Assembly: GCF_004362045.1 (NCBI RefSeq)
Contig: NZ_SNWX01000002.1
Location: 186,001-250,000, forward strand
DNA: 64,000 nucleotides
From: Halanaerobium saccharolyticum
GTDB taxonomy: Bacteria > Bacillota > Halanaerobiia > Halanaerobiales > Halanaerobiaceae
Direction: 5' to 3'
The notes under the pieces are model-generated. The model was not told the DNA's origin, made no database searches, and worked only from the letters and a program-made list of their open reading frames with translations. This document shows positions 21,285 through 46,135 of the stretch, piece by piece. Numbering within the stretch: the first letter of the stretch is position 1; each line of letters starts with the position of its first letter. The position numbers and the translations under genes are program-made.

Positions 21285-22760
21285 ATGATGATTAATTTAG
21301 ATTTAAACGAAAAACAGTTAGAAAAAGCAGTTGAGCGTGCCCGGGAGGAGAACATAATTCTGCCAACTTTTAAGCAGATGAAAAACCCGGAGCTTATTCC
21401 AGATAAGATCAAAGAACAGCTGAAAGATATCGGTCTCTGGGATGTAAACAGCTATAATTTATTCCGCATCAGCTGGAAAAATGAGCCTAAAAAAGATGGA
21501 GGCCTTTATGATGGTGTAAATTATATAGAATTCCCTTCAGAACTGACAGGTGTTGAGGCTCGAATTTTTGCGATAGTTGGTAAATGGTTTCCTACCGGAG
21601 CCCACAAGGTGGGAGCTACCTATGGCTGTCTTGCTCCCCAGCTGGTAACAGGACAATTTGATCCAACTTCCAGCCATGCAGTCTGGCCTTCAACCGGTAA
21701 TTACTGCCGTGGTGGAGCTTACAACTCTCAGCTTTTAGCCTGTGATTCAATTGCAATTTTACCCGAAGGGATGAGTAAGGAGCGTTTTGACTGGCTCCAG
21801 AAAGTTGCAGGTGAGGTGATTTCTACTCCCGGAACAGAAAGTAATGTTAAGGAAATTTTCGATAAGGTTTGGGAACTGAGAGAAACCAGGGATAATATTA
21901 CAGTTTTCAATCAGTTTGAAGAATTCGGCAACCACCTCTGGCATTATGAGGTTACAGGTGCTGCAATGGAAGAAGTTATCAGATCTGAAATGGGTGAAAA
22001 AGATAATTACTTTGGTTTTTTTGCTACCTCAGGTTCTGCTGGTACTTTAGGAGCTGGTGATCATCTTAAAGATCAGTTCCCTCAGAGTAAAATCGCTGTT
22101 GGGGAAGCACTGCAGTGTCCAACAATTTTAAGCAATGGTTTTGGTGCCCACAGAATTGAAGGTATTGGTGATAAACATATTCCCTGGATTCATAATGTTA
22201 AAAATACTGATATGGCAGTCGCTATTGATGATGAGAGAGCAGTTTCTCTGCTGAGATTATTTAACGAAGAAGCTGGAAGAGAGTATCTAATCGAGCAGGG
22301 TGTTCCCAGTGAATTTGTCGAAAAACTTGAACTGATGGGAATTTCTGGGATAGCAAATCTGGTTGGAGCAATTAAAATGGCCAAGTACTATGAGCTTGAT
22401 CAAAACCAGATGCTGATGACCGTTTTAACTGATTCGCTGGAATTATATTCCTCCCGCCTGGAAGAAATGAGAGAAGACAGAGGAGAATACACAAGGGAAG
22501 ATGCGATTAAGGATTATCAGCGTTATTTAAAAGGTATAAATACAGAAAATATTTTAGAGATGGGACTTGAAGAAAGACATAGGGTTCATAATCTTAAATA
22601 TTATACCTGGATTGAACAGCAGGGTAGAGATTCGGAAGAATTAAATGCTCAGTGGTATGATTATGAAAATTACTGGGGCGGAATTCATTCTCAGGCAGCA
22701 GAAATTGATAAATTAATAGAAGAGTTTAACCGGAGAACAGGTTTATTAGAAGAACTGTAG
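21285..22760 (+). CDS. Fold-type II PLP-dependent enzyme of the purine island
   Basis: A 491-residue PLP enzyme of the tryptophan synthase beta/cysteine synthase superfamily. The Schiff-base lysine is probably K108 in WFPTGAHKVGATYG; the phosphate-binding STGN lies at 136-139. The long N-terminal arm (about 75 residues) and C-terminal extension make it larger than cysteine synthase or the 398-residue E. coli YgeX. Its place beside YgeY and YgeW homologues, where E. coli has the diaminopropionate ammonia-lyase YgeX, suggests a related beta-elimination on an amino acid from purine breakdown; this is inference. AGGGAGG precedes ATG 21285/21288. First gene of the island, 116 nt after a terminator. 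Confidence 0.8.
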   Translation: MMINLDLNEKQLEKAVERAREENIILPTFKQMKNPELIPDKIKEQLKDIGLWDVNSYNLFRISWKNEPKKDGGLYDGVNYIEFPSELTGVEARIFAIVGKWFPTGAHKVGATYGCLAPQLVTGQFDPTSSHAVWPSTGNYCRGGAYNSQLLACDSIAILPEGMSKERFDWLQKVAGEVISTPGTESNVKEIFDKVWELRETRDNITVFNQFEEFGNHLWHYEVTGAAMEEVIRSEMGEKDNYFGFFATSGSAGTLGAGDHLKDQFPQSKIAVGEALQCPTILSNGFGAHRIEGIGDKHIPWIHNVKNTDMAVAIDDERAVSLLRLFNEEAGREYLIEQGVPSEFVEKLELMGISGIANLVGAIKMAKYYELDQNQMLMTVLTDSLELYSSRLEEMREDRGEYTREDAIKDYQRYLKGINTENILEMGLEERHRVHNLKYYTWIEQQGRDSEELNAQWYDYENYWGGIHSQAAEIDKLIEEFNRRTGLLEEL

Positions 22761-22821
22761 AATTGTATAAGCAATATATATATGTTGTAGAAATATATAA
22801 ATAGTAATTGAGGTGAAGCAG

Positions 22822-24069
22822 ATGAAATATGTAACAGGGCTGCACTGTATTAAGTGTGGTAAGGAATATGAAGCAGATCCTGAACGTTATCTCTGTGATG
22901 ACTGTGAGGATGGAATTTTGGATGTTGATTATGATTATCAAAAAATTAAGGCTGAGTGGTCAAAGGCGGATCTTAAGGCAAATTCCGACCGGCGAATCTG
23001 GCGTTTTGAACCACTGCTGCCAATCAATCCAGAAACAGAAAAACCAAAACTTGCTGTTGGCAATACTCCAATTTATAATTCACAGGTCCTTGCAGATGAG
23101 TTTGGGATTAAAGAATTGATCATAAAAGATGATGGTTTAAATCCGACTGCATCTTTAAAAGACCGGGCTTCAGCGATGGCTGTGGTTAAGGCTCAGGAAG
23201 CAGGTGCAACAACTGTTGCCTGTTCATCGACAGGTAATGCCGCTTCTTCTCTGGCCGGCAATATCGCCTCGATGGGAGGCCGAATGAATGCTGTGATTTT
23301 TGTGCCCGATCGGGCTCCAGCCGGTAAGCTGGCCCAGCTTTTAATTTACGGGGCTGATGTAGTTTCTGTTAAAGGATCATATGAAGAAGCATTTTATCTT
23401 TCAGCAGCTGCTATTGATAAATGGGGTTGGTATAACCGCAATGCTGCTATTAACTCCTATCTGGTTGAAGGGAAAAAAACAGTTTCTCTGGAGCTGGCAG
23501 AACAGCTGCAGTGGGAAATGCCGGATTGGGTTGTATTTTCTGTTGGTGATGGCTGTACTCTTGCCGGAGCCTATAAAGGTTTATTTGATCTCAAAGAAAT
23601 TGGCTTTATTGATAGAATACCAAAACTTCTGGGAGTTCAGGCTGCAGGCTGTGCCCCAATTACCGAGGCTTTTAGAAGCGGAAAAGATCTGGAAGTAACA
23701 GCTGAAAACACTATTGCCGACAGTATTGCTGTGGGGAAACCACGCAACTGGCTGAAGGCAGTAAGAGCAGTCAGAGATTCTGAGGGTGAGATGATTAATG
23801 TCAGTGATGAGCAGATTCTGGCGATGATGAGAACTCTGGGCAAAAAGACCGGCATTTTTGGTGAGCCGGCAGGTGTTGCCGGACTGGCTGGACTTAAAAA
23901 AGCAGCAGCCGCAGGAATTGTAAAGACAGATCAGACTGCAGCAGTTGTAATTACCGGGAATGGACTTAAAGATGTCAAAAATGCTCGCCGGGCTGCCGGA
24001 GATCCAATTGAAGTTGAGCCGGATCTTGAAAAACTAACCAGGGTTTTTGCCGAAAAGGGTGTGACTTAA
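22822..24069 (+). CDS. Threonine synthase-like PLP enzyme with zinc-ribbon N-terminus
   Basis: A 415-residue fold-type II enzyme. It begins with a zinc ribbon, CIKCGKEY and CDDCEDG (Cys 9, 12, 25, 28), as in archaeal/clostridial threonine synthases. The PLP lysine is K113 in NPTASLKDRASAMA, and the phosphate loop is CSSTGNAASSLAG. ATG 22822 is preferred over GTG 22813 since GAGGTG at 22810-22815 is then spaced properly. No homoserine kinase or dehydrogenase gene is near, and the neighbours are purine-degrading genes, so a role other than threonine synthesis, such as acting on diaminopropionate-type compounds, is likely but unproven. Its stop is 1 nt from the regulator gene. Confidence 0.82.
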   Translation: MKYVTGLHCIKCGKEYEADPERYLCDDCEDGILDVDYDYQKIKAEWSKADLKANSDRRIWRFEPLLPINPETEKPKLAVGNTPIYNSQVLADEFGIKELIIKDDGLNPTASLKDRASAMAVVKAQEAGATTVACSSTGNAASSLAGNIASMGGRMNAVIFVPDRAPAGKLAQLLIYGADVVSVKGSYEEAFYLSAAAIDKWGWYNRNAAINSYLVEGKKTVSLELAEQLQWEMPDWVVFSVGDGCTLAGAYKGLFDLKEIGFIDRIPKLLGVQAAGCAPITEAFRSGKDLEVTAENTIADSIAVGKPRNWLKAVRAVRDSEGEMINVSDEQILAMMRTLGKKTGIFGEPAGVAGLAGLKKAAAAGIVKTDQTAAVVITGNGLKDVKNARRAAGDPIEVEPDLEKLTRVFAEKGVT

Positions 24070-24070
24070 G

Positions 24071-24622
24071 ATGAGTGATAATACAAAATTAGGTCAGCGG
24101 ATCAGACAAAAACGCAAGGCCAAAGGGATGAGCTTAAATGATGTGGCAGAGAAAATTCAAAAAACATCAAGTTATTTAAGTCAGGTGGAACGGGGACTGG
24201 CCGAACCTTCAATTACTGCACTGCGGGAGATCGCCAGAGCTTTAGAGGTTCCAATTTTCTACTTTTTAATTGAGGAAGAAAACCACAATGCAGTTGTCCG
24301 CAAAGATGAGCGCCGAATTTTAAATTTTCCCGGTTCACATCTAACTTTTGAGCTGCTTTCTCCAGATTTAAATAGGGAGATGGAAGTGATTGCAGCTACT
24401 TTAGAACCCGGGGCTGCTACCTCGGATGATCCACTCAATCATCTAGGAGAAGAATGTACCATTGTGGTGGAGGGTAAAATGTATATTAAGATTGGAGATC
24501 AGGAATATGAATTAGAACCAGGGGACAGCATTTATTATAAAGCAAGTCTACCTCATAAGATTAAGAGTATTGGTGAGGAAGACCTGCATTTTATTTCTGC
24601 CATTACTCCACCTAATTTTTAA
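24071..24622 (+). CDS. XRE-family regulator with C-terminal cupin domain
   Basis: A 183-residue regulator. Residues about 8-62 form a Cro/CI helix-turn-helix (LGQRIRQKRKAKGMSLNDVA, TSSYLSQVERGLAEPSI), followed by a linker and a cupin barrel (residues about 105-180, HLGEECTIVVEGKMYIKIGD, LEPGDSIYYKASLPHKI). This PuuR/SutR-like architecture senses a small metabolite with the cupin. It starts 1 nt after the threonine synthase-like gene and lies within the island, so it is a good candidate for a local regulator responding to a purine breakdown product. The ligand is not deducible. Confidence 0.88.
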   Translation: MSDNTKLGQRIRQKRKAKGMSLNDVAEKIQKTSSYLSQVERGLAEPSITALREIARALEVPIFYFLIEEENHNAVVRKDERRILNFPGSHLTFELLSPDLNREMEVIAATLEPGAATSDDPLNHLGEECTIVVEGKMYIKIGDQEYELEPGDSIYYKASLPHKIKSIGEEDLHFISAITPPNF

Positions 24623-24734: not shown

Positions 24735-25976
24735 GTGATAGAATTTGACAAAATTGTTGAACAGGCTGAAAACTATAAATCTGAGATCAGTTCATTTTTG
24801 AGAGATATGATTCGAATTCCCAGTGAGAGCTGTGAGGAAGAGAAAGTTGTTTTAAGAATTAAAGAAGAGATGGAAAAGGTTGGTTTTGACAAAATCGAGA
24901 TTGATGAGATGGGTAATATTTTAGGATATATCGGCCACGGCAGTCATGTGATTGCTATGGATGCTCATATTGATACTGTTGGAGTTGGTGATCAATCTCT
25001 CTGGGATTATGATCCTTTTGAGGGTTATGAAGATGATGAGATAATTGTTGGTCGTGGAGCCAGCGATCAGGAAGGCGGCATGGCCTCAATGGTTTATGCC
25101 GGCAAAATTATTAAGGATTTAGGCTTAGAAGATGACTATACTCTGATTATTACCGGTACAGTTCAGGAAGAAGATTGTGATGGACTCTGCTGGCATTATA
25201 TGATTGAAGAAAATGATATTCGACCGGAATTTGTAGTAATTACTGAACCATCTTCCTGTAATATTTACCGCGGTCACCGGGGTAGAATGGAAATCAAGGT
25301 TAGTACTCATGGAGTCAGCTGTCATGGTTCTGCTCCCGAAAGAGGAGAAAATGCAATTTACAAGATGGCCCCGATTATCAATGAGCTCAAGGCTCTGCAT
25401 CCCAATTTAACTCCACATGAGTTTCTGGGTAAGGGCAGCCTGACGGTTTCTGAGGTTTTCTTCAGTTCACCTTCCCGCTGTGCAGTAGCTGATGGCTGCA
25501 GTATTTCTATTGACCGCCGCCTGACTGCAGGAGAAAGCTGGCAGTTTGCAGTCCAGCAGGTTAAAAATTTACCTGCAGTTAATGATGCAGAAGCAGAAGT
25601 TGAGATGTACCAGTATGAGAGACCATCTTATACCGATTTTCAATATCCAATCGAAGCCTATTTTCCAACCTGGTTGATCGAAGAGGAGCATCCGGTCTGC
25701 CAGACAACAGTGGAAGCCTATCAGGAATTATTTAAAGAAGAGCCGCTGGTTGATAAGTGGACCTTTTCGACCAATGGAGTTTCAATTATGGGACGCCACG
25801 GGATTCCCTGTATTGGTTTTGGACCGGGCCATGAAGATCAGGCTCATGCCCCAAATGAAAAAACATGGAAATCAGAACTTGTTAAAGCAGCTGCAATTTA
25901 TGCTGCAATTCCAAAATTATTTGTAGAAAAGTATGCTGATCAAATGCCCGAGAAAACAGAAAATTTATTAGCTTAA
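24735..25976 (+). CDS. ygeY: YgeY-family M20 peptidase/deacylase
   Basis: A 413-residue M20 zinc hydrolase (ArgE/DapE/carboxypeptidase type). Metal and catalytic residues are visible: DAHIDTVG (H78, D80), [10 protein letters not shown] (D111, bridging), TVQEEDCDG (E145 base, E146) and [15 protein letters not shown]. The match in length and the pairing with YgeW identify it as YgeY, which in E. coli and gut anaerobes belongs to the urate-degradation cluster and is proposed to remove a carbamoyl/acyl group from a diaminopropionate derivative. Start GTG 24735 has GGAGGTG in front. It precedes ygeW with a palindromic repeat in the gap. Confidence 0.85.
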
Positions 25977-25982
25977 ATTAAA

Positions 25983-26062: not shown

Positions 26063-26097
26063 ATCAACTAACCAAAATTCAAAGGAGGAATTTTTAA

Positions 26098-27081
26098 ATG
26101 GAAACTCAATTAAAAGGAAGAGATTTTATAACACTACAGGAATGGACAAAAGATGAGATTGATACATTGCTGGATGTTTCATTTGATCTAAAAAGAAAAT
26201 TTGCGATGGGAGAGCCAACTCCATATTTGAGAGATAAAACAGCATTTTTAATGTTTTTTGAGCAGTCAACCAGAACCAGAAATTCAATGGAGGCTGGACT
26301 GGCTCAGTTAGGTGGTCATGCCAACTTTTTAGATACCAGCACCATGCAGGTTTCTCACGGTGAGGTAGCAAAAGATACAGGTGTTATTTTAGGAAGTTAT
26401 GGACATGCAATTGCCTGCCGTAACTGTGTCTGGGAAATTGGAAATAAGTATCTGCGTTCACTGGCCAATCATGCAAAAGTTCCGGTAATGAACTTACAGT
26501 GTGATCTTTACCATCCAATGCAGGGTATTGCAGATTTAATGACAATAAAAGAAAAGAAAAAGAGAACTGATAATCTTAAAGTATCAATTATCTGGGCTTA
26601 TGCAACAAGTCACAAAAAGCCAATTTCTGTCCCCTTAACTCAGGCACTACTTTTCCCCCGTTATGGTATGGATGTAACTCTGGCTTACCCAGAAGGATAT
26701 GAGATGCCGGAATGGGTAATTGAACAGGCCCGGGAAAACGCTGAGAAAAATAATGGAACTTTCAAAATTACTCATGATCAGGATGAAGCCTATCGTGAAG
26801 CTGATATCGTTATACCTAAAAACTGGGGCAGCTGGGTTACCAATCAGGATGATGCAGTAATTGATGATCTTTTAGAATCAAATAAACACTGGAAGTGCAC
26901 AGAAGAGAGAATGGCCATGGCCGATGCTGATGTAATGTACATGCATGCTCTGCCTGCTGACCGCGGGAATGAGGTAGAGGATTCTGTAATAGATGGAGAA
27001 CACTCAATAGTCTTTACAGAAGCAGAAAATAGATTACACACAGCTAAAGCTGTAATGACTTTAACAATGGGTGGTAAGTAA
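26098..27081 (+). CDS. ygeW: YgeW-type knotted carbamoyltransferase
   Basis: A 327-residue transcarbamylase. The carbamoyl phosphate loop FFEQSTRTRNSMEAG (STRTR, residues 57-61) and MHALPADRG (HALP) are present, and the region VSHGEVAKDTGVILGSYG matches the knotted YgeW/UTC group rather than ornithine or aspartate carbamoyltransferases. In bacterial urate-degradation clusters YgeW is thought to run phosphorolytically, moving the carbamoyl group of a ureido intermediate to phosphate and so allowing ATP formation by a carbamate kinase; no kinase gene is in the window. AAAGGAGG precedes the ATG. Flanked by palindromic repeats on both sides. Confidence 0.87.
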   Translation: METQLKGRDFITLQEWTKDEIDTLLDVSFDLKRKFAMGEPTPYLRDKTAFLMFFEQSTRTRNSMEAGLAQLGGHANFLDTSTMQVSHGEVAKDTGVILGSYGHAIACRNCVWEIGNKYLRSLANHAKVPVMNLQCDLYHPMQGIADLMTIKEKKKRTDNLKVSIIWAYATSHKKPISVPLTQALLFPRYGMDVTLAYPEGYEMPEWVIEQARENAEKNNGTFKITHDQDEAYREADIVIPKNWGSWVTNQDDAVIDDLLESNKHWKCTEERMAMADADVMYMHALPADRGNEVEDSVIDGEHSIVFTEAENRLHTAKAVMTLTMGGK

Positions 27082-27291: not shown

Positions 27292-28335
27292 ATGAGAAAA
27301 ATATTAATAATTACTTTAATTTTAGCACTGGTGAGTACAGCATCTCTGACAGTGATGGCCCAGGATTCGAAGGTTTTAAAACTCAGTCATTTAAATCCAC
27401 AGCAGCCAAAAGAAGTTGCAACAGCAGCAATGGCCGAGGTATTTAAGTCGATGGTCGAAAGTGGAACCAACGGCCGAATTACTGTCGAAATTTATCCAAA
27501 TGGAGTTCTGGGTAATGAAAGAGAAAGTATGGAACAGGTGCAGAGTGGAGTAACCCACAGTTATATAGCATCTGGTGGTGGGATGGCTACCTTTTATCCA
27601 ATGTTTTCCATAGTTAACATTCCATTTTCAATTACCAATTATTCGGTTGCTTATGAGGTATATGATGGTGCATTTGGCCAGCAGATGGCAGCGGATATTG
27701 AAGAAAAAACAGGATTTAAAGTGCTCGGTTTTGGCGAATCAGGAGGATTTTTTCAGCTCACCAATAGTGTGCGGCCAATTAGAACTCCAGAAGATATGGA
27801 AGGTTTAAAATTTAGAACAATGACCATTCCTATTCATATGGAATTTATGCGTTCTCTTGGTGCCTCACCTACTCCAATTGCCTGGGCTGAATTATACACA
27901 GCTCTGCAGACAGGTGTAGTAGACGGACAGCATAATCCAATTCCAATTATTAAAATCGGTAAACTAGAAGAAGTTCAGGATTATTTAACTTTGACCAACC
28001 ATATGTATACTCCTTATGTCTGGGTCTTAAATTCTGATTTTTATTCTGCACTAACTACTGAAGAAAAGATAGTAATTGAAGAGGCAGCAAGAGTTGCAAA
28101 TCTGGCAGGCCGTGGTGTTAATAGGTTAATAGAGGCTTCTGATGATGGACTTCCCTATTTAGCAAAAGAAATGGAAGTTTATAAGCCAACTGCAGAAGAA
28201 ATTCAGATGTTTAAAGATGCAGCAATACCAGCCTCAATGGACTTTATTGAAGCAGAATATGGAGCAGAAGGGGCTAAACTGGCTCAGGATTATCTTGATG
28301 CAATAGAAGCTGCTCAGGAAAAATTTGGTATGTAA
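27292..28335 (+). CDS. TRAP transporter substrate-binding protein (DctP family)
   Basis: A 347-residue periplasmic binding protein. The first 24 residues (MRKILIITLILALVSTASLT then VMAQD) are a classic Sec signal peptide with an AxA-type cleavage site and no lipobox Cys, so the mature protein is soluble in a periplasm. The core shows LKLSHLNPQQPKEVATAAMA, IEVYPNGVLGNERE-like IYPNGVLGNERESMEQVQ, the DctP anchor LKFRTMTIPIHMEF (Arg that binds a carboxylate) and LYTALQTGVVDGQHNP. It delivers an organic acid to the DctQM pair. Given the neighbours, the substrate could be urate, a ureido acid or lactate, which cannot be decided here. Confidence 0.9.
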   Translation: MRKILIITLILALVSTASLTVMAQDSKVLKLSHLNPQQPKEVATAAMAEVFKSMVESGTNGRITVEIYPNGVLGNERESMEQVQSGVTHSYIASGGGMATFYPMFSIVNIPFSITNYSVAYEVYDGAFGQQMAADIEEKTGFKVLGFGESGGFFQLTNSVRPIRTPEDMEGLKFRTMTIPIHMEFMRSLGASPTPIAWAELYTALQTGVVDGQHNPIPIIKIGKLEEVQDYLTLTNHMYTPYVWVLNSDFYSALTTEEKIVIEEAARVANLAGRGVNRLIEASDDGLPYLAKEMEVYKPTAEEIQMFKDAAIPASMDFIEAEYGAEGAKLAQDYLDAIEAAQEKFGM

Positions 28336-28344
28336 CTAAAAATT

Positions 28345-28373
28345 AAAAGGGGTAGTTTTATTCTACCCCTTTT
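28345..28373 (+). terminator. Hairpin between dctP and dctQ
   Basis: AAAAGGGGTAG, loop TTTTATT, CTACCCCTTTT: an 11-bp perfect stem 10 nt after the dctP stop. Typical of a partial terminator or mRNA stabiliser that keeps the binding protein more abundant than the membrane subunits. Confidence 0.85.
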
Positions 28374-28395
28374 ATTCAGTTGAGAGGTGGGCAAA

Positions 28396-28980
28396 TTGGA
28401 TAATACTAGTATCTTTGACAGACTGGAAGCCTTTGGAGACTGGCTGGGCAAAATAACTTTATTTGTAGTAATCATTTTAACTGGAATTCTGGTAATAACA
28501 GTATTAACCGGAGTCTTTTTTCGTTATATAATTCGGGATTCCTTAAGCTGGACTGAGGAGCTGGCCCGCTATTTGATGATCTGGGCTGCCCTGCTGGCAG
28601 TTAGTGTGGGAATTAAGGATAAGGAACATGTCGGGATTCAGCTTTTAATCAAACAGTTTCCACCAGTTATAACTAAATTAATCACTTTTGTGGTTTATCT
28701 AATTACAATTATTTTTCTGGGAGTTTTAACGGTTAAAGGTTATCAGGTGGCAGATAAAGCACAAAATCAACTTTCTCTTGCCTTAAATATTTCAATGTAC
28801 TGGCCCTTAATGAGCATCCCGGTTTCTGGCTCTCTGGCAATTATCCAGCAGTTGATCCAGACAATCTTAATTTTCAAACCAGGAATAGAAGTTTCAGAAA
28901 TATTAGGAGAAACAGAAGTAGATGAAGCTTTAAGAGAAGTTAAAGAAATTCAGATAGAAACAGAAAAGGGTCAGGGGTGA
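28396..28980 (+). CDS. TRAP transporter small membrane subunit (DctQ family)
   Basis: A 194-residue protein with four membrane segments. RYIIRDSLSWTEELARYLMIWAALLAVSVG is recognisable in pieces as the DctQ core (SWTEELARYLMIWA). The C-terminal 35 residues are acidic and cytoplasmic. A GTG at 28387 gives three extra residues, but AGAGGTGG at 28383-28390 fits the TTG at 28396 better (MDNTSIFDRLEAFG). It ends 6 nt before dctM. It pairs with DctM to form the sodium-driven permease. Confidence 0.87.
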   Translation: MDNTSIFDRLEAFGDWLGKITLFVVIILTGILVITVLTGVFFRYIIRDSLSWTEELARYLMIWAALLAVSVGIKDKEHVGIQLLIKQFPPVITKLITFVVYLITIIFLGVLTVKGYQVADKAQNQLSLALNISMYWPLMSIPVSGSLAIIQQLIQTILIFKPGIEVSEILGETEVDEALREVKEIQIETEKGQG

Positions 28981-28986
28981 TTTTAG

Positions 28987-34485: not shown

Positions 34486-34487
34486 TA

Positions 34488-35829: not shown

Positions 35830-35830
35830 G

Positions 35831-38008: not shown

Positions 38009-38123
38009 ATTAATAGTCATAGTCTAGTCAATGCTGGTTATAGGCGGACAGATGGTCTTATTTATTTTATTAAATTTTATTCAAATTTTCGATCTGAAAA
38101 ATCAGAAAGAAAGGAGTGGTTTC

Positions 38124-39455
38124 TTGCTCTTATTAACCAACGGAACAGTAATTACTCATGACGAAGATAATCGAGTTATTAAAAATGGAGCAGTTTTAAT
38201 TGAGGGAGAAGAAATTAAGGCTTTAGGAGAATCTGAGCTTTTAAAATCAAAGTATCCGGAAGCAGAAGTTAAAGATGTTCAGGGCAAAATTATTATGCCG
38301 GGAATGATCAATACTCACATGCATATCTACAGCACCTTTGCCCGGGGCATGGATTTAAAAACTGAGCAGCCGCCCCGACATTTTTTAGAAATTCTGGAGA
38401 AAATGTGGTGGCGGGTAGACAGCACATTAAAAGCAGATGATATTTATTACAGTGCTCTTTATGCCTTTCTGACAGGACTAAAACAGGGTGTGACCTCTGT
38501 TTTTGACCACCATGCAAGCTACGGACAGGTAAGTTATTCGCTTGATCTGGTAGCTAAAGCAGTGGAGGAACTGGGTATTAGAGCTGATCTCTGTTATGAG
38601 ATTTCTGACCGCAATGGTCAGGAGCAGTCTCAGGCAGCGGTTAAAGAAACTGAGAAATTTTTAAAGAAGATTAGGGAGAAAAATTCAAATCATTTAAATG
38701 GTAGAATTGGATTACATGCTTCATTTACCTTAGAAGATGAGACTTTAGAGCAAGTTTCAGCCCTGGCCGATGAATTAGACAGCAGTTTCCATATTCATGT
38801 AGCTGAAGGACGAACTGATTTAGAAGACAGCCGGCTCCGCGGTTACAATGGAGCGGTTAAGCGTCTTGATCAGTACAATATCTGGCGGCCGGGAACTATT
38901 GCTGTTCACGGGGTCCATCTGCAGGAAGGTGAGCTGGAGATTTTAAGAGACAATGATTGTTATCTGATTAATAATCCGGAATCCAATATGGGAAATGCGG
39001 TAGGAGCAGCACCCTTAAAGCAAGCTCTGGACAAAGGTCTCAAAGTTGGACTGGGTACAGATGGTTATACAACTGATATGTTTGAGAGCATCAAGGTTGC
39101 TAATTTAATGCTCAAACATCAGAATCGAGATCCCCGTCTGGGCTGGACTGAAATTCCCCAGATGGTTTTTAAGACAAATGCAAAGCTGGCCAGTGAGAGC
39201 TTTGGCACTCAGCTTGGTGTTTTAAAAGAGGGGGCAGCTGCAGACATTATTGTAGTTGATTACAGCCCGCCAACGGAAATAAATAGTGATAATACTTATG
39301 CCCACATCTTATTTGGAATCAATGGCGGCATGGTTGAGACAACAATTGTTAATGGTAAAATATTAATGGAAAATCGGGAGGTGCAGGTAGTTGATGATCA
39401 GAAAATCACCCATGAAACAAGAGAACAGGCAGACGATTTCTGGAGCAGATTTTGA
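38124..39455 (+). CDS. ssnA: SsnA family aminohydrolase
   Basis: A 443-residue amidohydrolase, nearly the length of E. coli SsnA (442). It shares GMINTHMHIYSTFARGM (HxH metal site), the segment LEKMWWRVDSTLKADDIYYS, VTSVFDHHAS, FHIHVAEG, AVHGVHLQEGEL and GTDGYTTDMFE. SsnA is a standard member of bacterial urate/purine degradation clusters. Its exact reaction is not settled; hydrolysis or deamination of a purine-derived ring is assumed. The start is TTG 38124, with AAGGAG at 38111-38116 spaced 7 nt; the longer frame from 38031 has no ribosome site and adds hydrophobic residues absent from the family. Confidence 0.87.
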   Translation: MLLLTNGTVITHDEDNRVIKNGAVLIEGEEIKALGESELLKSKYPEAEVKDVQGKIIMPGMINTHMHIYSTFARGMDLKTEQPPRHFLEILEKMWWRVDSTLKADDIYYSALYAFLTGLKQGVTSVFDHHASYGQVSYSLDLVAKAVEELGIRADLCYEISDRNGQEQSQAAVKETEKFLKKIREKNSNHLNGRIGLHASFTLEDETLEQVSALADELDSSFHIHVAEGRTDLEDSRLRGYNGAVKRLDQYNIWRPGTIAVHGVHLQEGELEILRDNDCYLINNPESNMGNAVGAAPLKQALDKGLKVGLGTDGYTTDMFESIKVANLMLKHQNRDPRLGWTEIPQMVFKTNAKLASESFGTQLGVLKEGAAADIIVVDYSPPTEINSDNTYAHILFGINGGMVETTIVNGKILMENREVQVVDDQKITHETREQADDFWSRF

Positions 39456-40305
39456 GGAATATTTTCAGCCTCAGAATTTAGAGAAGGCTCTGGAAATTAA
39501 AGCAGAATATTCGGACCAGATTGAGGTGGCAGCAGGTACTACAGATTTGCTGGTAGCAAATTATGAGCAGCTGCATCAAATTAAAAATTGGCTGGATCTG
39601 GATAAAATAGATGAACTGCGCAAAATTGAAATTTTGGAGAATGAGCTGCATATAGGAGCAATGGTAACTCATCTGCAGCTGATGAAATCAGATTTGATTA
39701 AAGAAAAATTGGCGGTTCTGGCTGCAGCAGCTGAAGATGTTGGTTCACCACAAATTAGAAGCAGGGGTACAATTGGCGGCAATATCTGTACTTCTTCACC
39801 AGCAGGAGATCTCCTGGCTCCTCTTTTAAGCTATGAGGCCAGCTTTAAACTTCAGAAAGCAGGAGCAGAAAGAATTGTGAGAGCTGAAGACTTTTTTACC
39901 GGGCCAAAAAGAAATTTAATGGAAGCTGATGAACTTTTAACAGAAATCATTATTCCGCTGACGGAAAACGAACGCGAAGGTGCCTGGGTTAAAGTTGGAC
40001 GCCGCAAGGCTCTCGTTATTTCTACCCTGACTCTTTCGGTAGTGCTGGAATTTGAAGCTGATAAGATAATCGAAGCTGGAATAGCTCTGGGTTCTGTTGC
40101 CCCAACACCGATCAGGTTGTGGGAAGTTGGAGAGCTGATGCTCGGAAGCAGCTTAACAGAACTGGATTACAAACAGCTGGGCCAGGAAGTCAAAGCCCGG
40201 ATTAATCCCATTGATGATTTAAGAGGTACCAGAGAATACAGAGAAGATGTAGCAGCTGATGTAATGGTCAGAGCTTTAAATGAGATTGAAAGGAAAAGGG
40301 GGTGA
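39412..40305 (+). CDS. Molybdenum hydroxylase FAD-binding subunit, second set
   Basis: A subunit of about 297 residues. FAD motifs are EVAAGTTDLLVANYEQ and SPQIRSRGTIGGNICTSSPA; the C-terminal flavoprotein domain contains VKVGRRKALVISTLTLSV. The family core begins at FEEYFQPQNLEKAL, about 15 residues after ATG 39412. The gene overlaps the end of ssnA by 44 nt, so translation is coupled. Start is uncertain: ATG 39391 is also in frame and no clear ribosome site favours either. It heads the second hydroxylase set, order FAD-FeS-Mo(N)-Mo(C), different from the first set. Confidence 0.85.
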   Translation: MKQENRQTISGADFEEYFQPQNLEKALEIKAEYSDQIEVAAGTTDLLVANYEQLHQIKNWLDLDKIDELRKIEILENELHIGAMVTHLQLMKSDLIKEKLAVLAAAAEDVGSPQIRSRGTIGGNICTSSPAGDLLAPLLSYEASFKLQKAGAERIVRAEDFFTGPKRNLMEADELLTEIIIPLTENEREGAWVKVGRRKALVISTLTLSVVLEFEADKIIEAGIALGSVAPTPIRLWEVGELMLGSSLTELDYKQLGQEVKARINPIDDLRGTREYREDVAADVMVRALNEIERKRG

Positions 40306-40312
40306 GCAGCTG

Positions 40313-40798
40313 ATGCAGATTACATTTACAGTTAATGGAGAAGAAAGAGAATTGGAAGTTACTCCCTATACCAGGCTGCTCGATTTATTGAGAGAAGATC
40401 TCGGCTTAACAGGAGTTAAAGAAGGCTGTGGTAAAGGTGAGTGCGGAGCCTGTACAGTAATTATGAATGGAGAACTAACAGCTTCCTGTCTGGTTCCAGC
40501 TCCCCAGGCAGACCAGGCAGAGATTCTAACGGTAGAAGGATTGGGAACAAGGGATGATCTACATCCAATTCAGGAATCATTTGTGGAAGCAGGAGCAGTT
40601 CAATGCGGCTACTGTATTCCCGGTATGATATTAGCAGGAAAAAGATTGCTGGATGAGAATCCTCAGCCAACAGAAAAAGAAGTACGCTATGGATTATCCG
40701 GTAATATCTGCCGCTGTACCGGTTATGCGAAGATTATCGATGCTGTAATGATGGCAGCAGATAAACTTGCAGTCGAAGGAAGTGATAGTAATGACTGA
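40313..40798 (+). CDS. Molybdenum hydroxylase 2Fe-2S subunit, second set
   Basis: A 161-residue subunit with all eight cluster cysteines: CGKGECGACTVIMNGELTAS plus C, VQCGYCIPGM and NICRCTGYAK. ATG 40313 is chosen (MQITFTVNGEERELEV) since AAGGGGGTG lies upstream; a longer frame from 40280 overlaps the FAD gene. Overlaps the next gene by 8 nt. Confidence 0.9.
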   Translation: MQITFTVNGEERELEVTPYTRLLDLLREDLGLTGVKEGCGKGECGACTVIMNGELTASCLVPAPQADQAEILTVEGLGTRDDLHPIQESFVEAGAVQCGYCIPGMILAGKRLLDENPQPTEKEVRYGLSGNICRCTGYAKIIDAVMMAADKLAVEGSDSND

Positions 40799-42137
40799 TC
40801 AGAATAAAAGAATTAAGGATTATTTCTGTAAACATACAACCCGCTGTACAATTGAAGGAGTTAAAAAAAGCAAGCGTTTTGTGGGCCATGATGTATTGAA
40901 GGCAGATGCCTGGGACAAGGTGACTGGAGAAGCAGTTTATCCTGATGATATATTTTTCGATGATCTGCTTTACGTTAAAATTAAAAGAGCAGTCCATCCC
41001 CATGCTATTTTAAAAGATATAGATATTTCGCAGGCTAAAAAAGTAGAGGGTGTAGTTGATATTGTTATTGCCGAAGATATTCCGGATGTCAGACAGTTTG
41101 GTCTGATTATCAGAGATCAACCCGTTTTAATTGCGCCCGGAGAAAAGATGCGCTATATGGGAGATCCGCTGGCGATAGTTGTTGCTGAGACAAAGGAAGC
41201 AGCTAAAAAAGCAAGGGATCTAATTAAAGTAAAGGTGGAAGAATTAGAAGTTATCACCGACCCCTTCCGGGCGATGGAGGATGATGCTCCGGATATTCAT
41301 CCAGATGGAAATATTGTAATCACCCATCATTTAAATCGGGGTGATGTTGATGAGGCTTTTAAAAATTCAGCAATAGTTGAAGAAAATCGCTATCAAACTC
41401 AATTTATCGATCAGCTGCCGATGCAGAATGAAGCCGGAGTTGCTCTCTACGATGAGCGTCGGGGAGTAATTAATATCTGGGCTGCAACTCAGTGGCTGCA
41501 TGATACTCAGGCCGATGTTGCTCAGTCTTTAAGATTATCAAAAGATCAAATTAGAATTATTCAGCCTACAATTGGTGGCGCCTTTGGGAAAAAAGAGGAT
41601 GTTTCGGTTCATATTCATCTGGCTATTGCAGCAATGAGGACCGGGAGACCGGTTAAGCTCTGTTTTACCAGAGAAGAATCGATGATTACTCAATCCAAAC
41701 GGCATCCAATTACAATTATCAATAAAACTGGTGTGGACCGTGATGGCTATTTAACCGCCTGGGAAACCAAATTTATTGGAGACACCGGAGCCTATGCTTC
41801 CAGTGGACCGGCAGTTGTGCACAAGGGAATGTACCATGCAACAGGACCCTATAACTGTCCCAATTTACGTGGTGTCTCCCATGCAGTTTATACCAATAAT
41901 ACCTATGCTGGTGCGATGCGCGGTTTTGGTACTGCTCAGGGAGCTTTTGCCTATGAACAGCAGATGGATATTCTGGCAGAAAAGTTAAGTATAGATCCGG
42001 CAGAATTTAGACTCAAAAACATCTATCAAAAAGATTCGATTACTCCTAACGGTCAGCAGCTTACTCACAGTGTAAATGCAGAAGAAACAATCAAAAGAGT
42101 GATGGAGCTCAGTGACTGGAAAGGGGGCAGAAAATAA
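40791..42137 (+). CDS. Molybdenum hydroxylase large subunit, N-terminal half
   Basis: A 448-residue protein that corresponds to the hammerhead and first Mo-binding domain of the 763-residue paralogue at 32194. Visible motifs are FVGHDVLKADAWDKVTGEAV, PTIGGAFGKKEDVSVHIHLA, TNNTYAGAMRGFGTAQGAFA and NIYQKDSITPNGQQL. It then stops at a clean TAA (42135-42137), exactly where the domain boundary to MoCoBD_2 is expected. It lacks the catalytic GEPT segment, which lies in the next gene. An N-terminal extension of about 30 residues with three Cys/His (FCKHTTRCTIEG) precedes the family core and is not in the paralogue. Confidence 0.85.
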   Translation: MTDQNKRIKDYFCKHTTRCTIEGVKKSKRFVGHDVLKADAWDKVTGEAVYPDDIFFDDLLYVKIKRAVHPHAILKDIDISQAKKVEGVVDIVIAEDIPDVRQFGLIIRDQPVLIAPGEKMRYMGDPLAIVVAETKEAAKKARDLIKVKVEELEVITDPFRAMEDDAPDIHPDGNIVITHHLNRGDVDEAFKNSAIVEENRYQTQFIDQLPMQNEAGVALYDERRGVINIWAATQWLHDTQADVAQSLRLSKDQIRIIQPTIGGAFGKKEDVSVHIHLAIAAMRTGRPVKLCFTREESMITQSKRHPITIINKTGVDRDGYLTAWETKFIGDTGAYASSGPAVVHKGMYHATGPYNCPNLRGVSHAVYTNNTYAGAMRGFGTAQGAFAYEQQMDILAEKLSIDPAEFRLKNIYQKDSITPNGQQLTHSVNAEETIKRVMELSDWKGGRK

Positions 42138-43138
42138 TGAAAAAATTTGGACGCGGACTGGCAACAATTATGTTTGGATTTGGTTATGGTGAGGGTTTTC
42201 CTGACCATTCTATTGCCTCAATTGAAATTAAAGAAGATGAGCGGATAGTTATCAGAACAGCTGCAGCCGATGTTGGGCAGGGAGTTATTACAACTGTGAT
42301 TCAGATTGCAGCAGAGATTTTAAGAATAAATCCAAACTATTTTGAAGTGGTTCAGGGTGATACCCATAAAACTAAAAACTCAGGTTCAACCTCTGCTACC
42401 CGGCAGACCTATTTTACCGGTAATGCAGTTAAAAAAGCAGCCGAAGATCTGCTGGCTAATCTATACCACTACGGCAGTTTAGAATTTCGCAGCAACCATC
42501 CTGAAATTGCAATTGAGGATGGAAAAATCTATATGTATGATGACCCGGACGATTATATTAGCTACTGGGAAATGGCAGAAAGAGTTAGAGAAAGAGGTAA
42601 AAAATTAGAAGCAGAAGGAAGTTTCTTTCCTGTAACCTACAGTCCTGATCAAAATGGTCAGGCAGACAAAGTCTATGTAGCCTATACTTTCCTCTCTCAG
42701 GTGATTGATATTGAAATTGATACAGATACCGGAACAATTGATCTCCTGGATGTTTATACAGCTGTTGACCTTGGTAAAGCAATTAATCCCAAAAATGTTG
42801 AAGGCCAGATTGAAGGTGGAACTGTTCAGGGACTGGGAATGGGAATGATGGAAGACCAGGTGATTCGCAATGGTAAAACACTCAATGCAGGCATGACAGA
42901 TTATCTGGTGCCGACAAGTGTTGATATTCCCAAATTCAAGCACTATCTGGTTGAAGAAGAGGATTCTGAAGGACCGTTTGGAGCCAAAGGAGTTGGGGAA
43001 CCGACTTTAATTGCTGCTGCCCCGGCACTGGCCAATGCTGTTTATGATGCAATCGGAGTTAGATTTTTTGATTTACCGATTAGTCCCTCAAAGATCAAAA
43101 AGGCTTTAAAAGAGAAAGAAAAGGAAGAAAATAGTTAA
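42137..43138 (+). CDS. Molybdenum hydroxylase large subunit, C-terminal half
   Basis: A 333-residue protein that starts with ATG overlapping the previous stop by 1 nt and carries the second Mo-binding domain: IRTAAADVGQGVITTVIQIA, SGSTSATRQTYFTGNA, AINPKNVEGQIEGGTVQGLG and the catalytic FGAKGVGEPTLIAAA. It has its own ribosome site (AAGGGGG at 42121-42127, 9 nt spacing), so this is a true two-gene arrangement rather than a frameshift: the two halves are out of frame and meet at a domain boundary. Together they give 781 residues, near the 763 of the fused paralogue. Confidence 0.85.
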   Translation: MKKFGRGLATIMFGFGYGEGFPDHSIASIEIKEDERIVIRTAAADVGQGVITTVIQIAAEILRINPNYFEVVQGDTHKTKNSGSTSATRQTYFTGNAVKKAAEDLLANLYHYGSLEFRSNHPEIAIEDGKIYMYDDPDDYISYWEMAERVRERGKKLEAEGSFFPVTYSPDQNGQADKVYVAYTFLSQVIDIEIDTDTGTIDLLDVYTAVDLGKAINPKNVEGQIEGGTVQGLGMGMMEDQVIRNGKTLNAGMTDYLVPTSVDIPKFKHYLVEEEDSEGPFGAKGVGEPTLIAAAPALANAVYDAIGVRFFDLPISPSKIKKALKEKEKEENS

Positions 43139-43274
43139 AGCCAGAGATTTACCTGAGATCATCCCCGCTCATTGACATAAGCGAAACTTTCTCGGCTAAA
43201 TTCGGTAAGTTAACTGAAAGCAGATAAACCAGTCGAAATTAGAGCAATTAAATATAAATAGGAGAGTGAAGAAA

Positions 43275-44360
43275 ATGGCTGATTTAAGTGTTAAATTGTT
43301 TGACTTTACACTAAAAAATCCGGTAATGCCGGCTGCTGGACCACCAATTAAAGATGCAAAAATGGCAGCGAAAGCAAAAGCTGGCGGCACAGGAGCAATT
43401 GTAACCAAGACTATTTCTACTAAAGCAGCAGAGGTTCCCCGGCCCAATATGGCCCAGACCAGAGGTGGTTTTATGAACACAGAGCTCTGGTCAGAAATGG
43501 GACCTGATCACTGGTTAGAAAACGAATATCCAAAAATTAAAGATTTGGGGCTGCCGGTAATCGTTGGTCTGGGCTACAGTGCTGAGCAGATTAGTGAACT
43601 GGTCAAAAAAACTGAAGCCTATGCTGATGCTTTTGAGCTGTCAACCCATTATTTAGGCAGTGATACTTCTCCGGTCGTAGAAAGTATCAAAGCTGCAAAA
43701 AAAGCCACTGATAAACCGGTAATGGTTAAGCTCAGTCCGCAGATTGATATTCCCAAATTTGCCAGGGCTGCGGCAGAGGCTGGAGCAGATGGACTTGTTT
43801 TGATTAATTCATTTGGGCCAACCCTTGATTTTGATATAGACAGCGGCAGACCGCTGATGGGAAGTGCAGATGGTTATGGCTGGCTTTCCGGAGAAGCAAT
43901 TTTTCCGCTGGCCTTAAGGGCAGTTTTCCAGGCTGTTCAGACTGTGGATATTCCTGTTTTAGCTGTTGGCGGAATTTCTACCGGAGCTGATGCAGTTAAG
44001 ATGATCATGGCTGGAGCCCAGGCAGTACAGACCTGTACAGCCGCTATCCTGAAAGGTCCTCAGGTTTATGGTAAAATTGCAGAAGAAATTGATCAATATT
44101 TAGAAAAGCATGGTTATCAGAATCTGGATCAGATCAGAGGTCTGGCTCAGAAGGCAGCTCCGGAAGCAGCAAATTACGAAACAAGGGTGCCTAAAATCAA
44201 AAGAGATAACTGTACTGGCTGTAGACTCTGTATTATCAGCTGTGTTTATGATGCCAACTATTTAGATCAGGAAAATAGAATTGTGATCGATGCTGAAAAA
44301 TGTGCCGGCTGCGGCCTCTGTGTTACCCGCTGTAACTTTGAAGCTCTGGCACTGGCATAA
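43275..44360 (+). CDS. PreA-like dihydroorotate/dihydropyrimidine dehydrogenase with two 4Fe-4S clusters
   Basis: A 361-residue flavoprotein. Residues about 1-290 form the FMN-binding TIM barrel of class 1B dihydroorotate dehydrogenase and PreA (LKNPVMPAAGPPIKDAK, VMVKLSPQIDIPKFAR, LVLINSFGPTLDF, VLAVGGISTGADAVKMIMAGA). The last 60 residues are a two-cluster ferredoxin: CTGCRLCIISC and CAGCGLCVTRC. E. coli PreA acts with PreT to reduce uracil; no PreT is seen here, so another electron partner is needed. In this island it may reduce a purine or hydantoin ring. ATG 43275 is chosen over GTG 43266, as TAGGAGAG at 43259-43266 fits it. Confidence 0.85.
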   Translation: MADLSVKLFDFTLKNPVMPAAGPPIKDAKMAAKAKAGGTGAIVTKTISTKAAEVPRPNMAQTRGGFMNTELWSEMGPDHWLENEYPKIKDLGLPVIVGLGYSAEQISELVKKTEAYADAFELSTHYLGSDTSPVVESIKAAKKATDKPVMVKLSPQIDIPKFARAAAEAGADGLVLINSFGPTLDFDIDSGRPLMGSADGYGWLSGEAIFPLALRAVFQAVQTVDIPVLAVGGISTGADAVKMIMAGAQAVQTCTAAILKGPQVYGKIAEEIDQYLEKHGYQNLDQIRGLAQKAAPEAANYETRVPKIKRDNCTGCRLCIISCVYDANYLDQENRIVIDAEKCAGCGLCVTRCNFEALALA

Positions 44361-44383
44361 TAGGATAGAGAAAGGGGGAGCTT

Positions 44384-46135
44384 ATGCTGAGAAAAGAATT
44401 ACTAAAACAGGCCCGAGGACTGGAAAAAGCTGATAAAGTATTTAAAAATGCGGTAATTGTTGATGTGTTTAATGAACGATTAATCGAAAATGATATTGCA
44501 GTTGCAGATGGGATTATCATTGGAATTGGTGATTATGAAGGAAAAGAAGAAATCGATCTGGGAGGGAGAATAGTTACTCCTGGCTTAATTGATGCTCATC
44601 TGCATCTGGAATCTTCAATGACCAATGTAGATGAGTTTGCCCGGGTGATTATTCCCCGGGGGACAACTACCATTGTAGCTGATCCCCACGAAATTGCCAA
44701 TGTAGCAGGTTTAACCGGGATTAAATACCTGCTGAAAGCCGGTAATTCTCAGCCCTGGAATTTTAATCTGATGCTCCCTTCCTGTGTGCCAGCTTCTAAA
44801 TTTGAAAATTCAGGGGCTAAACTTTCGGCAGCTGATCTCAAGACATTAATTGATGAAAAGGGCATTTTTGGGCTGGGAGAAGTGATGGATTTTCAGTCAG
44901 TAATTAATGGTGAGCCTGGAATCTGGGATAAAATTGAAATGGCTTCTGACTTATTTAAAGATGGTCATTCTCCAGGTTTATCGGAGAAAGATTTAAATGC
45001 CTATTTACTGGCAGATATTAAAGCAGATCATGAGGCAACAACTGCTGCAGAAGCTTTAGAGAAGGTTTCTAAAGGAATGTATATTATGATCAGAGAAGGT
45101 TCGGTTACCAGAGATTTAGTCAGCCTGCTGCCCGCTGTTAACAGCAGCAATTCTTCCCGATTCCTGTTTGCAACAGATGACAGACATCCGGGAGATCTGA
45201 TCAGCGAAGGTCAGATTGATTTTGCTGTCCGGAAGGCAATTCAGTATGGTCTTTCTCCTTTAAGAGCAGTTAAGATGGCGACAATTAATGCCGCTGAAGC
45301 TCTGGGGATGAAAAAACTGGGAGCCATTGCCCCCGGTTATCAGGCAGATTTATTAGTTTTTGATAATTTAAGAGAATTTGAAGTAAAGAAAGTTTATAAG
45401 GATGGGCGTCTGGTCGCTGAAGACGGAACTTTGCTTAAATCAATTGATGATAAAATCTCCCTGGATCAAGAAGATTTTATGAATCAGGAAATTGAAGAAA
45501 AAATCTTTAACTCAATCAGAGTTGGAGAAATTTCGGAAGCTGATTTTCTACTGCCGGCTGCCAGCAAATATAGGGTTATAGAACTGATCAAAGATCAGGT
45601 AGTAACTGGAGAGTCCCTTTATCAGACGGAGGCAGAATATGAGGAAGAACCGCCTGCAATCGAGCTGATTGGTCACAATCTGGTTAAACTGGCTGTTGTA
45701 GAAAGACACCACAAAACCGGAAATGTTGGTCTGGGTCTGCTCCGCAATTTTGGCCTGCGTCAGGGGGCAATTGCAACTTCGATCGGACATGATGCTCACA
45801 ATATAATTGTGGCAGGAGTGGGAGCTAAAGATATGGAGCTTGCTGTTAGAGAAATCGAAAAGATGCAGGGCGGCCTGGTGATAGTTGTTGACGGGAAAGT
45901 AAAAGCATCACTGGCTTTACCGGTAGCTGGATTAATGGCTGTTAAGTCGGTCAAAGAGGTTGCAAACTGCTTAAATAAAATGAGGGAAATCGCAAATGAT
46001 CTGGGAGTTAGCAGGGATGGTCCTTTTATGACTTTATCCTTTATGGCCTTAACTGTAATTCCAGAACTCAAATTGACTGATCAGGGATTATTTGATGTTA
46101 ATAAATTTGAAAAGGTTGAGTTGATTATAGAATGA
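44384..46135 (+). CDS. ade: Adenine deaminase
   Basis: A 583-residue amidohydrolase that converts adenine to hypoxanthine plus ammonia. It has GLIDAHLHLESSMTNVDEF (HxH metal ligands), ADPHEIANVAGL, FGLGEVMDF, FATDDRHPGDL (Asp/His) and the C-terminal adenine deaminase domain (NVGLGLLRNFGL, ATSIGHDAHNIIVAG). Length and motif set match bacterial AdeC. GGGGGAG precedes the ATG, 23 nt after the PreA-like gene. It ends the enzyme block; a new promoter and riboswitch follow. Confidence 0.93.
   Translation: MLRKELLKQARGLEKADKVFKNAVIVDVFNERLIENDIAVADGIIIGIGDYEGKEEIDLGGRIVTPGLIDAHLHLESSMTNVDEFARVIIPRGTTTIVADPHEIANVAGLTGIKYLLKAGNSQPWNFNLMLPSCVPASKFENSGAKLSAADLKTLIDEKGIFGLGEVMDFQSVINGEPGIWDKIEMASDLFKDGHSPGLSEKDLNAYLLADIKADHEATTAAEALEKVSKGMYIMIREGSVTRDLVSLLPAVNSSNSSRFLFATDDRHPGDLISEGQIDFAVRKAIQYGLSPLRAVKMATINAAEALGMKKLGAIAPGYQADLLVFDNLREFEVKKVYKDGRLVAEDGTLLKSIDDKISLDQEDFMNQEIEEKIFNSIRVGEISEADFLLPAASKYRVIELIKDQVVTGESLYQTEAEYEEEPPAIELIGHNLVKLAVVERHHKTGNVGLGLLRNFGLRQGAIATSIGHDAHNIIVAGVGAKDMELAVREIEKMQGGLVIVVDGKVKASLALPVAGLMAVKSVKEVANCLNKMREIANDLGVSRDGPFMTLSFMALTVIPELKLTDQGLFDVNKFEKVELIIE

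What the first reader, a model, noticed from the sequence alone, without database searches (positions are those of the whole stretch)
21285..46135. Purine/urate degradation island with an unusual PLP-enzyme pair in place of classic YgeX
YgeY, YgeW, SsnA, molybdenum hydroxylases, adenine deaminase and purine permeases lie together, as in bacterial anaerobic urate degradation clusters. Instead of the 398-residue diaminopropionate ammonia-lyase there are two fold-type II enzymes: a 491-residue one with long extensions and a zinc-ribbon threonine synthase-like one, next to an XRE-cupin regulator. No hydantoinase, carbamate kinase or YgfK is in the window. This may be a variant route for the last carbon-nitrogen steps in a halophilic anaerobe.
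Basis: partly seen in the sequence, partly recalled or inferred. Interest (0 to 1): 0.72.

Follow-up and report, generated by a model that had tools for sequence, protein, structure and literature searches.

The report
Alternative enzyme pair for urate breakdown
Many anaerobic bacteria that carry the recently described oxygen-free uric acid breakdown genes lack the known final enzyme, YgeX, and instead carry two other vitamin-B6 enzymes of unknown activity, as in this Halanaerobium-like genome, so the last step of the pathway may run differently from the published scheme.

Summary
A Halanaerobium-like genome carries a purine/urate island (21285-46135) and no true YgeX. Two fold-type II PLP proteins lead the cluster: PLP1 (491 aa, CysK-type core with extra ends) and ThrCl (418 aa, zinc ribbon, threonine-synthase fold). 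The pair is widespread. In 398 genomes of the phylum PLP1 and ThrCl co-occur (72 both, 14 and 3 alone). Among 87 SsnA genomes 67 have both and 23 have YgeX. Of 38 SsnA families 23 have only the pair, 9 only YgeX, 6 both, none neither: the pattern of alternative solutions. ThrCl is a clade apart from threonine synthases and this genome has another threonine synthase. PLP1 carries, in 116 of 116 rows, the Asp that aligns with the key Asp232 of the cysteine hydroxyl lyase Fn1055. Best reading: the pair processes 2,3-diaminopropionate after YgeY, in place of YgeX. The exact reactions (serine intermediate, or racemase plus lyase) are inferred; nothing was assayed.

The parts
21285..22760 (+). PLP1: 491-aa fold-type II PLP protein, CysK-type core plus N- and C-terminal extensions
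22813..24069 (+). ThrCl: zinc-ribbon protein with threonine-synthase fold
24071..24622 (+). XRE-cupin regulator, 1 base after ThrCl
24735..25976 (+). YgeY hydrolase (69% identical to E. coli YgeY)
26098..27081 (+). short-form YgeW-like carbamoyltransferase
27292..30270 (+). TRAP transporter DctP, DctQ, DctM; substrate unknown
30502..31848 (+). xanthine permease PbuX-type
32194..35829 (+). molybdenum hydroxylase set 1 (three subunits)
35789..37195 (+). 8-oxoguanine deaminase
   Evidence: 598.9 bits, cut-off 532
38031..39455 (+). SsnA aminohydrolase
39391..43138 (+). molybdenum hydroxylase set 2; large subunit split in two ORFs at 42137
43266..44360 (+). UacX-type candidate: PyrD/PreA-like reductase with ferredoxin-like C-terminus
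   Evidence: not compared with C. difficile UacX
44384..46135 (+). adenine deaminase
   Evidence: 604.3 bits, cut-off 472.5
46631..47947 (+). second Xan_ur-type permease

Best explanation
A variant of the reductive (anaerobic) uric acid pathway in which the terminal YgeX step is taken over by a conserved two-protein PLP module, PLP1 + ThrCl. Shown here: the pair is present, YgeX is absent, the pair is genetically tied to SsnA/YgeY genomes over many families, and it complements YgeX. Inferred: YgeW-type phosphorolysis and YgeY hydrolysis give 2,3-diaminopropionate (published for E. coli). PLP1 binds it through Lys108, eliminates the beta-amino group to alpha-aminoacrylate and, with Asp296 placed like Asp232 of Fn1055, either adds water (serine + ammonia) or releases pyruvate + ammonia. 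ThrCl, a threonine-synthase fold with a changed distal pocket, completes the route, as a serine-type deaminase or as a D/L racemase. End products: pyruvate and ammonia.
For: PLP1 and ThrCl: 72 genomes with both, 14 and 3 with one, 309 with neither of 398. ThrCl with SsnA in 70 of 75. Family level: 23 pair only, 9 YgeX only, 6 both, 0 neither of 38 SsnA families, p = 3e-5. PLP1-ThrCl within 10 kb in 46 of 72 genomes, 20 families. YgeY over its cut-off in 68 of 69 ThrCl genomes tested. Own genome: YgeX absent, hydantoinase and carbamate kinase present, separate threonine synthase. Asp296, Lys297, Gln210, Ser136, Thr137 and Lys108 in 98 of 98 PLP1 and 18 of 18 second-branch rows; Asp296 aligns with the residue that differs between wild-type Fn1055 and its D232N entry, a key residue of a cysteine hydroxyl lyase (PMC12940168 passage). 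ThrCl is one clade against threonine-synthase-like controls.
Against: The pair coexists with YgeX in 12 of 87 SsnA genomes, in Desulfosporosinus-type clusters in one gene run. 4 of 87 SsnA genomes have neither, 5 only one of the two proteins. 14 of 86 PLP1 genomes lack ThrCl and 17 of 86 lack SsnA. 18 of 72 genomes have the two genes over 50 kb apart or on different contigs. The test limited to genes within 50 kb of SsnA is weak, p = 0.046. The Asp296 match rests on a low-identity alignment, and no substrate was tested.
Confidence: 0.65

Rival explanations
1. PLP1 alone is the diaminopropionate ammonia-lyase (a non-orthologous YgeX), and ThrCl is a racemase that turns a D-isomer into the L-isomer that a CysK-type enzyme needs.
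For: Bipolaricaulota loci L085 and L087 have PLP1 in a purine run without a labelled ThrCl; in G146 PLP1 lies between alanine dehydrogenase and an M20 hydrolase; serine and aspartate racemases are among the fold neighbours of ThrCl; YgeX acts on both isomers and the stereochemistry of the route is open (PMC12507026, PMC12990295).
Against: Threonine synthases are closer in fold to ThrCl than racemases; a racemase is not needed where YgeX is also present.
Confidence: 0.25
2. The pair diverts 2,3-diaminopropionate into biosynthesis (serine or cysteine by beta-replacement) and pyruvate formation is left to YgeX or to nothing.
For: PLP1 is CysK-like and coexists with YgeX in 12 SsnA genomes.
Against: At family level the pair and YgeX exclude each other more than chance, as expected of a substitute, not of an add-on.
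Confidence: 0.12
3. ThrCl and PLP1 are ordinary threonine and cysteine biosynthesis enzymes that happen to lie here.
For: ThrCl passes NCBIfam's thrC cut-off (215.4 of 167.1) and meets PRK08197 exactly (303).
Against: Association with SsnA (70 of 75 ThrCl genomes), separate clade, and a second threonine synthase over the cut-off in 10 of 11 pair genomes; G121, a draft 80% complete, shows only ThrCl.
Confidence: 0.04

Closest known systems
Reductive uric acid pathway of E. coli and C. difficile (Li et al. 2025, PMC12507026)
   Same: SsnA, YgeY, Mo hydroxylases, hydantoinase, carbamate kinase and a YgeW-like carbamoyltransferase in one genome, most in one gene run
   Different: No YgeX; PLP1 + ThrCl instead; UacX-type candidate instead of YgfK; hydantoinase and carbamate kinase away from the main run
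YgeX, 2,3-diaminopropionate ammonia-lyase
   Same: Fold-type II PLP proteins in an SsnA/YgeY genome; presumed substrate
   Different: Neither protein reaches the family cut-off; ThrCl and YgeX rows fall on different sides of the tree
Fn1055, cysteine hydroxyl lyase of Fusobacterium nucleatum
   Same: Fold (Z 33.8, rmsd 2.5, 313 residues); Asp232 and Gln147 equivalents; Thr73/Ser74 as Ser/Thr
   Different: About 23% identity; PLP1 has N- and C-terminal extensions; different gene context; activity untested
Threonine synthase
   Same: ThrCl fold (Z 37.2-45.3 in 11 of the first 12 rows), 33-35% identity to bacterial enzymes
   Different: Separate clade; Arg160 equivalent absent in 79 of 79 rows; another threonine synthase in the genome

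Membership tests
Reductive uric acid pathway cluster | SsnA | tested here: met
   TIGR03314 547.8 bits, cut-off 455.5
Reductive uric acid pathway cluster | YgeY | tested here: met
   TIGR03526 712.6 bits, cut-off 321.5
Reductive uric acid pathway cluster | Hydantoinase HyuA | tested here: met
   TIGR02033 407.1 bits, cut-off 393.25, on the same contig 60 kb before the window
Reductive uric acid pathway cluster | YgfK or UacX | tested here: inconclusive
   PyrD/PreA-type protein with ferredoxin-like end, below all PyrD/PreA cut-offs shown; not compared with UacX itself
Reductive uric acid pathway cluster | YgeX | tested here: not met
   No match over the NF006058 cut-off in the genome
Reductive uric acid pathway cluster | Degrades urate through yanthine | not testable with these tools
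   needs growth and metabolite analysis
YgeW | NCBIfam YgeW cut-offs | tested here: not met
   170.2 of 500 and 179.6 of 453 bits
YgeW | Groups with YgeW and not with OTC | tested here: inconclusive
   E. coli YgeW lies among these proteins, ArgI and PyrB outside, but the tree warns of long branches and the supporting fork is 94; shared stretches with 3q98
YgeX / diaminopropionate ammonia-lyase (PLP1, ThrCl) | NF006058 cut-off | tested here: not met
   ThrCl 49.9 bits of 276; PLP1 not listed at E <= 0.001
Threonine synthase (ThrCl) | NCBIfam thrC cut-off | tested here: met
   215.4 bits, cut-off 167.1
Threonine synthase (ThrCl) | Arg160 of the T. thermophilus enzyme (phosphate site, recalled) | tested here: not met
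   0 of 79 ThrCl rows, 7 of 10 controls
Threonine synthase (ThrCl) | Asn188 of the T. thermophilus enzyme (phosphate site, recalled) | tested here: inconclusive
   Asp in 79 of 79 ThrCl rows, but Asn in only 2 of 10 controls, so the position does not discriminate
Cysteine hydroxyl lyase (Fn1055) for PLP1 | Asp232, Gln147 and Thr73/Ser74 equivalents | tested here: met
   Asp296 and Gln210 in 116 of 116 rows; Ser136-Thr137 in the place of Thr-Ser
Cysteine hydroxyl lyase (Fn1055) for PLP1 | Converts L-cysteine and water to serine and H2S | not testable with these tools
   needs an assay

The most novel reading that the evidence does not exclude
PLP1 is a diaminopropionate hydroxy-lyase: 2,3-diaminopropionate + water gives serine + ammonia by the Fn1055-type mechanism, and ThrCl deaminates serine to pyruvate. 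Anaerobic uric acid breakdown in most SsnA lineages of this phylum sample would then run through serine, by an enzyme activity that I know of no description of, instead of by YgeX.
Probability: 0.25. Interest if true: 0.75.

Novelty: new variant of a known kind. Interest (0 to 1): 0.6.

Why it matters
The anaerobic urate pathway is of interest for gout and gut ecology, and its published form ends in YgeX. In this sample of 398 genomes YgeX is in only 23 of 87 SsnA genomes, while both PLP1 and ThrCl are in 67. Surveys that mark YgeX by Pfam PF00291, as in PMC12507026, cannot tell these proteins apart, since both pass that model. If the pair is the real last step, predicting uricolytic bacteria by ygeX alone misses most of these carriers, and two enzyme activities become directly testable.

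Tried and rejected
Selenocysteine in PLP1: rows with stops inside. In one search I translated minus-strand loci in the wrong direction, so those rows of that alignment are void. L007 (right strand) has its TGA at the normal end of the gene; for L004 and L020 the reading starts one codon in, past the end codon, and shows no internal stop. The TAG of L029 was not looked at on the right strand.

Link to a C. difficile cysteine desulfidase (CdsB): a lead only; no sequence compared. F420-type reductase in Chloroflexota: the recurrent neighbour d5 of about 320 aa reads as a glycosyltransferase by eye, so that idea was dropped. UacY in the own genome: PF07969 gives 15 partial amidohydrolase matches, none tested as D-aminoacylase. 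Insertion at tRNA-Glu: no second copy of the tRNA 3' end within the window at up to 5 mismatches of 23. Diaminopropionate lyase residues: no paper found. YgeX-type chains are not among the 50 listed fold rows of PLP1 or ThrCl, which excludes nothing.

Literature: the listings of searches showed me no paper that names a threonine-synthase-like or second PLP protein in these clusters. The library does not hold the two 2023 papers on the gene cluster and no supplement was read, so I do not claim that it is not in print. Seen: of PMC12507026 outline, part 1 of 3 of Results, Discussion and passages; of PMC12990295 part 1 of 2; of PMC11448449, PMC9600241 and PMC12940168 passages.

Rows dropped before counts: one search tested 69 of 75 ThrCl genomes (G238, G349, G379, G241, G345, G286 left out) plus 11 YgeX-only genomes. 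G349 (partial, 392 bits) was counted as ThrCl and G153 (SsnA fragment, 420.6 bits, under the cut-off) as SsnA. One search used every second ThrCl row and 11 of 20 fetched control loci; one search used 10 of 20. Rows were chosen by length and hold near-identical genomes (e.g. L033 and L084). In one search the ORF picker lost PLP1 to a longer antisense frame in some loci (e.g. L088, L109). One search kept the best 80 of 591 loci. Family labels for one search were copied by hand.
Full report
What is there. The window (contig C2:186001-250000 of a 3.36 Mb genome in 79 contigs) carries a run of purine genes on the + strand from 21285 to 47947. ORFs and families: PLP1, ThrCl, XRE-cupin regulator, YgeY, a YgeW-like carbamoyltransferase, a TRAP transporter, xanthine permease, Mo-hydroxylase set 1, 8-oxoguanine deaminase, a DUF1801 protein, SsnA, Mo-hydroxylase set 2 with a split large subunit, a UacX-type candidate, adenine deaminase and a second permease. 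The nearest named relative of PLP1 is in Halanaerobium kushneri, 93%, with the same order from the CoADR gene through OsmC, PLP1, ThrCl, XRE, YgeY and carbamoyltransferase to DctP and DctQ.

The pathway is nearly complete on paper. Li et al. 2025 (PMC12507026) describe urate to yanthine (XdhD), YgfK or UacX plus SsnA to ureidomethyl-hydantoin, HyuA to diureidopropionate, YgeW or UacY to albizziin, YgeY to 2,3-diaminopropionate and YgeX to pyruvate. Here Mo hydroxylases, a UacX-type candidate, SsnA, a YgeW-like protein and YgeY are in the window. A hydantoinase over its cut-off lies 60 kb before it, behind a TupA-like gene (241.1 bits, below the cut-off of 400) and with the same neighbours in two related genera. 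A carbamate kinase is on another contig. YgeX is the enzyme without any candidate over the cut-off. Which Mo hydroxylase would reduce urate is not known.

The YgeW question. The 327-aa protein fails both YgeW cut-offs. Aligned to the YgeW-type structure 3q98 it shares the stretches around WAY-S--KP-SVP, ADIV-PK-W and W-CTEE; the OTC alignments show a W-SMG-type stretch at the second place. In a quick tree E. coli YgeW falls among these proteins (fork support 94) while ArgI and PyrB lie outside, with a warning about long branches.

The pair is widespread. In 398 genomes drawn from the phylum, PLP1-family matches (E <= 1e-40) are in 86: 34 with 56% identity or more, the others a second branch at 34-44%. 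A ThrCl profile finds 74 genomes at 529 bits or more, the next full-length matches at 393 or less, plus one partial counted in. SsnA is in 87 (86 over the cut-off) and YgeX over its cut-off in 60. PLP1 and ThrCl: 72 both, 14 PLP1 alone, 3 ThrCl alone, 309 neither. Among the 87 SsnA genomes: 55 have PLP1 and ThrCl without YgeX, 12 all three, 11 YgeX only, 3 ThrCl only, 2 PLP1 only, 4 none. By family (38 with SsnA): 23 pair only, 9 YgeX only, 6 both, 0 neither, p = 3e-5. By genome, YgeX against PLP1-or-ThrCl p = 3.5e-5, against both together p = 0.003. Over all 398 genomes YgeX and PLP1 show no association (p = 0.31): the exclusion is seen among SsnA genomes. Limited to genes within 50 kb of SsnA: 15 genomes with YgeX, 45 with PLP1 or ThrCl, 4 with both, p = 0.046. 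PLP1 and ThrCl lie within 10 kb in 46 of 72 genomes and in 20 families; in 14 they are on different contigs and in 4 over 50 kb apart. In the named set, a ThrCl-like ORF lies in the fetched flank of PLP1 in 45 of 80 loci, among them Chloroflexota, Synergistota, Spirochaetota, Bacteroidota and Acidobacteriota. YgeY passes its cut-off in 68 of 69 ThrCl genomes tested and in 7 of 11 YgeX-only genomes.

ThrCl. It folds like threonine synthase: 11 of the first 12 rows, Z 37.2-45.3; the other is CapA2, Z 39.3 (model pLDDT 90.7). But 41 ThrCl rows form one side of a branch with SH-aLRT 99 against eleven threonine-synthase-like controls and three YgeX rows. At Arg160 of the T. thermophilus enzyme 0 of 79 rows has Arg, against 7 of 10 controls; at Asn188 all 79 have Asp, but only 2 of 10 controls have Asn, so this position says little; Arg209 is invariant in ThrCl and absent from the 10 controls. 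That Arg160 and Asn188 hold the phosphate of the normal substrate is recalled. The genome has a separate 504-508 aa threonine synthase, and 10 of 11 pair genomes searched have a second one over the cut-off.

PLP1. The model (pLDDT 88.5, pTM 0.91) matches cysteine-synthase-type enzymes over residues 35-413; the ends lie outside that span. Lys108, Ser136-Thr137-Gly138-Asn139, Gln210 and Asp296-Lys297 are in all 98 PLP1 and 18 second-branch rows; E. coli CysK has Ala-Gly at 296-297. Two Fn1055 chains, wild type and the one whose entry is titled D232N, differ in the column that aligns with Asp296. A 2026 review passage calls Fn1055 a cysteine hydroxyl lyase with Asp232, Ser74, Thr73 and Gln147 as key residues (PMC12940168). 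This is the ground for proposing water addition to an aminoacrylate; it is an inference from an alignment at low identity.

Against the simple reading. The pair coexists with YgeX in 12 SsnA genomes, in Desulfosporosinus-type clusters in one gene run. PLP1 occurs without ThrCl (14 of 86) and without SsnA (17 of 86). In G150 it precedes a glycyl-radical-enzyme gene although ThrCl, YgeY and SsnA lie together elsewhere in that genome. In G146 it sits between alanine dehydrogenase and an M20 hydrolase, and M20 proteins recur near it (L072-L074, L101, L108), which would fit a substrate freed by an M20 hydrolase.

Verdict. A real, conserved variant of a known pathway that I found named in none of the papers I could see. 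That the pair belongs to the pathway and substitutes for YgeX is well supported by genomics; which of the two does what is open.

Noticed in passing
40767-43138: The large subunit of Mo-hydroxylase set 2 is split into two ORFs overlapping by one base (TAATG). Split forms also occur in L037, L079 and L075, an unsplit one in L081 (759 aa), so this looks like a natural gene fission and not a sequencing error.
   Followed up: partly
18000-46135: G+C steps from 29.8% (1-18000) to 41.4% in the cluster, 36.4% after it, next to a tRNA-Glu gene at 18425-18500. Two genomes of the same genus in the sample lack PLP1, ThrCl and SsnA: a patchy, perhaps acquired island.
   Followed up: partly
L076:7267-11030: The genome's own hydantoinase follows a TupA-like tungstate-binding gene and an ABC transporter; the same order is in L077 and L078, a link between metal uptake for the Mo/W enzymes and the remote pathway step.
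   Followed up: no
L035:5283-12964: In G150 PLP1 precedes a glycyl radical enzyme (indoleacetate decarboxylase-like, 870.3 bits of 1100) and a double-cubane reductase (519.6 bits, cut-off 350). Function unknown.
   Followed up: no
L085, L087, L154: Bipolaricaulota and Ardenticatenia loci carry two tandem YgeW-like carbamoyltransferases beside carbamate kinase, as if each ureido group had its own enzyme.
   Followed up: no
52282-53532: Nickel-dependent malate racemase of the LarAH6 family (583.1 bits, cut-off 500), after adenosylhomocysteinase.
   Followed up: no
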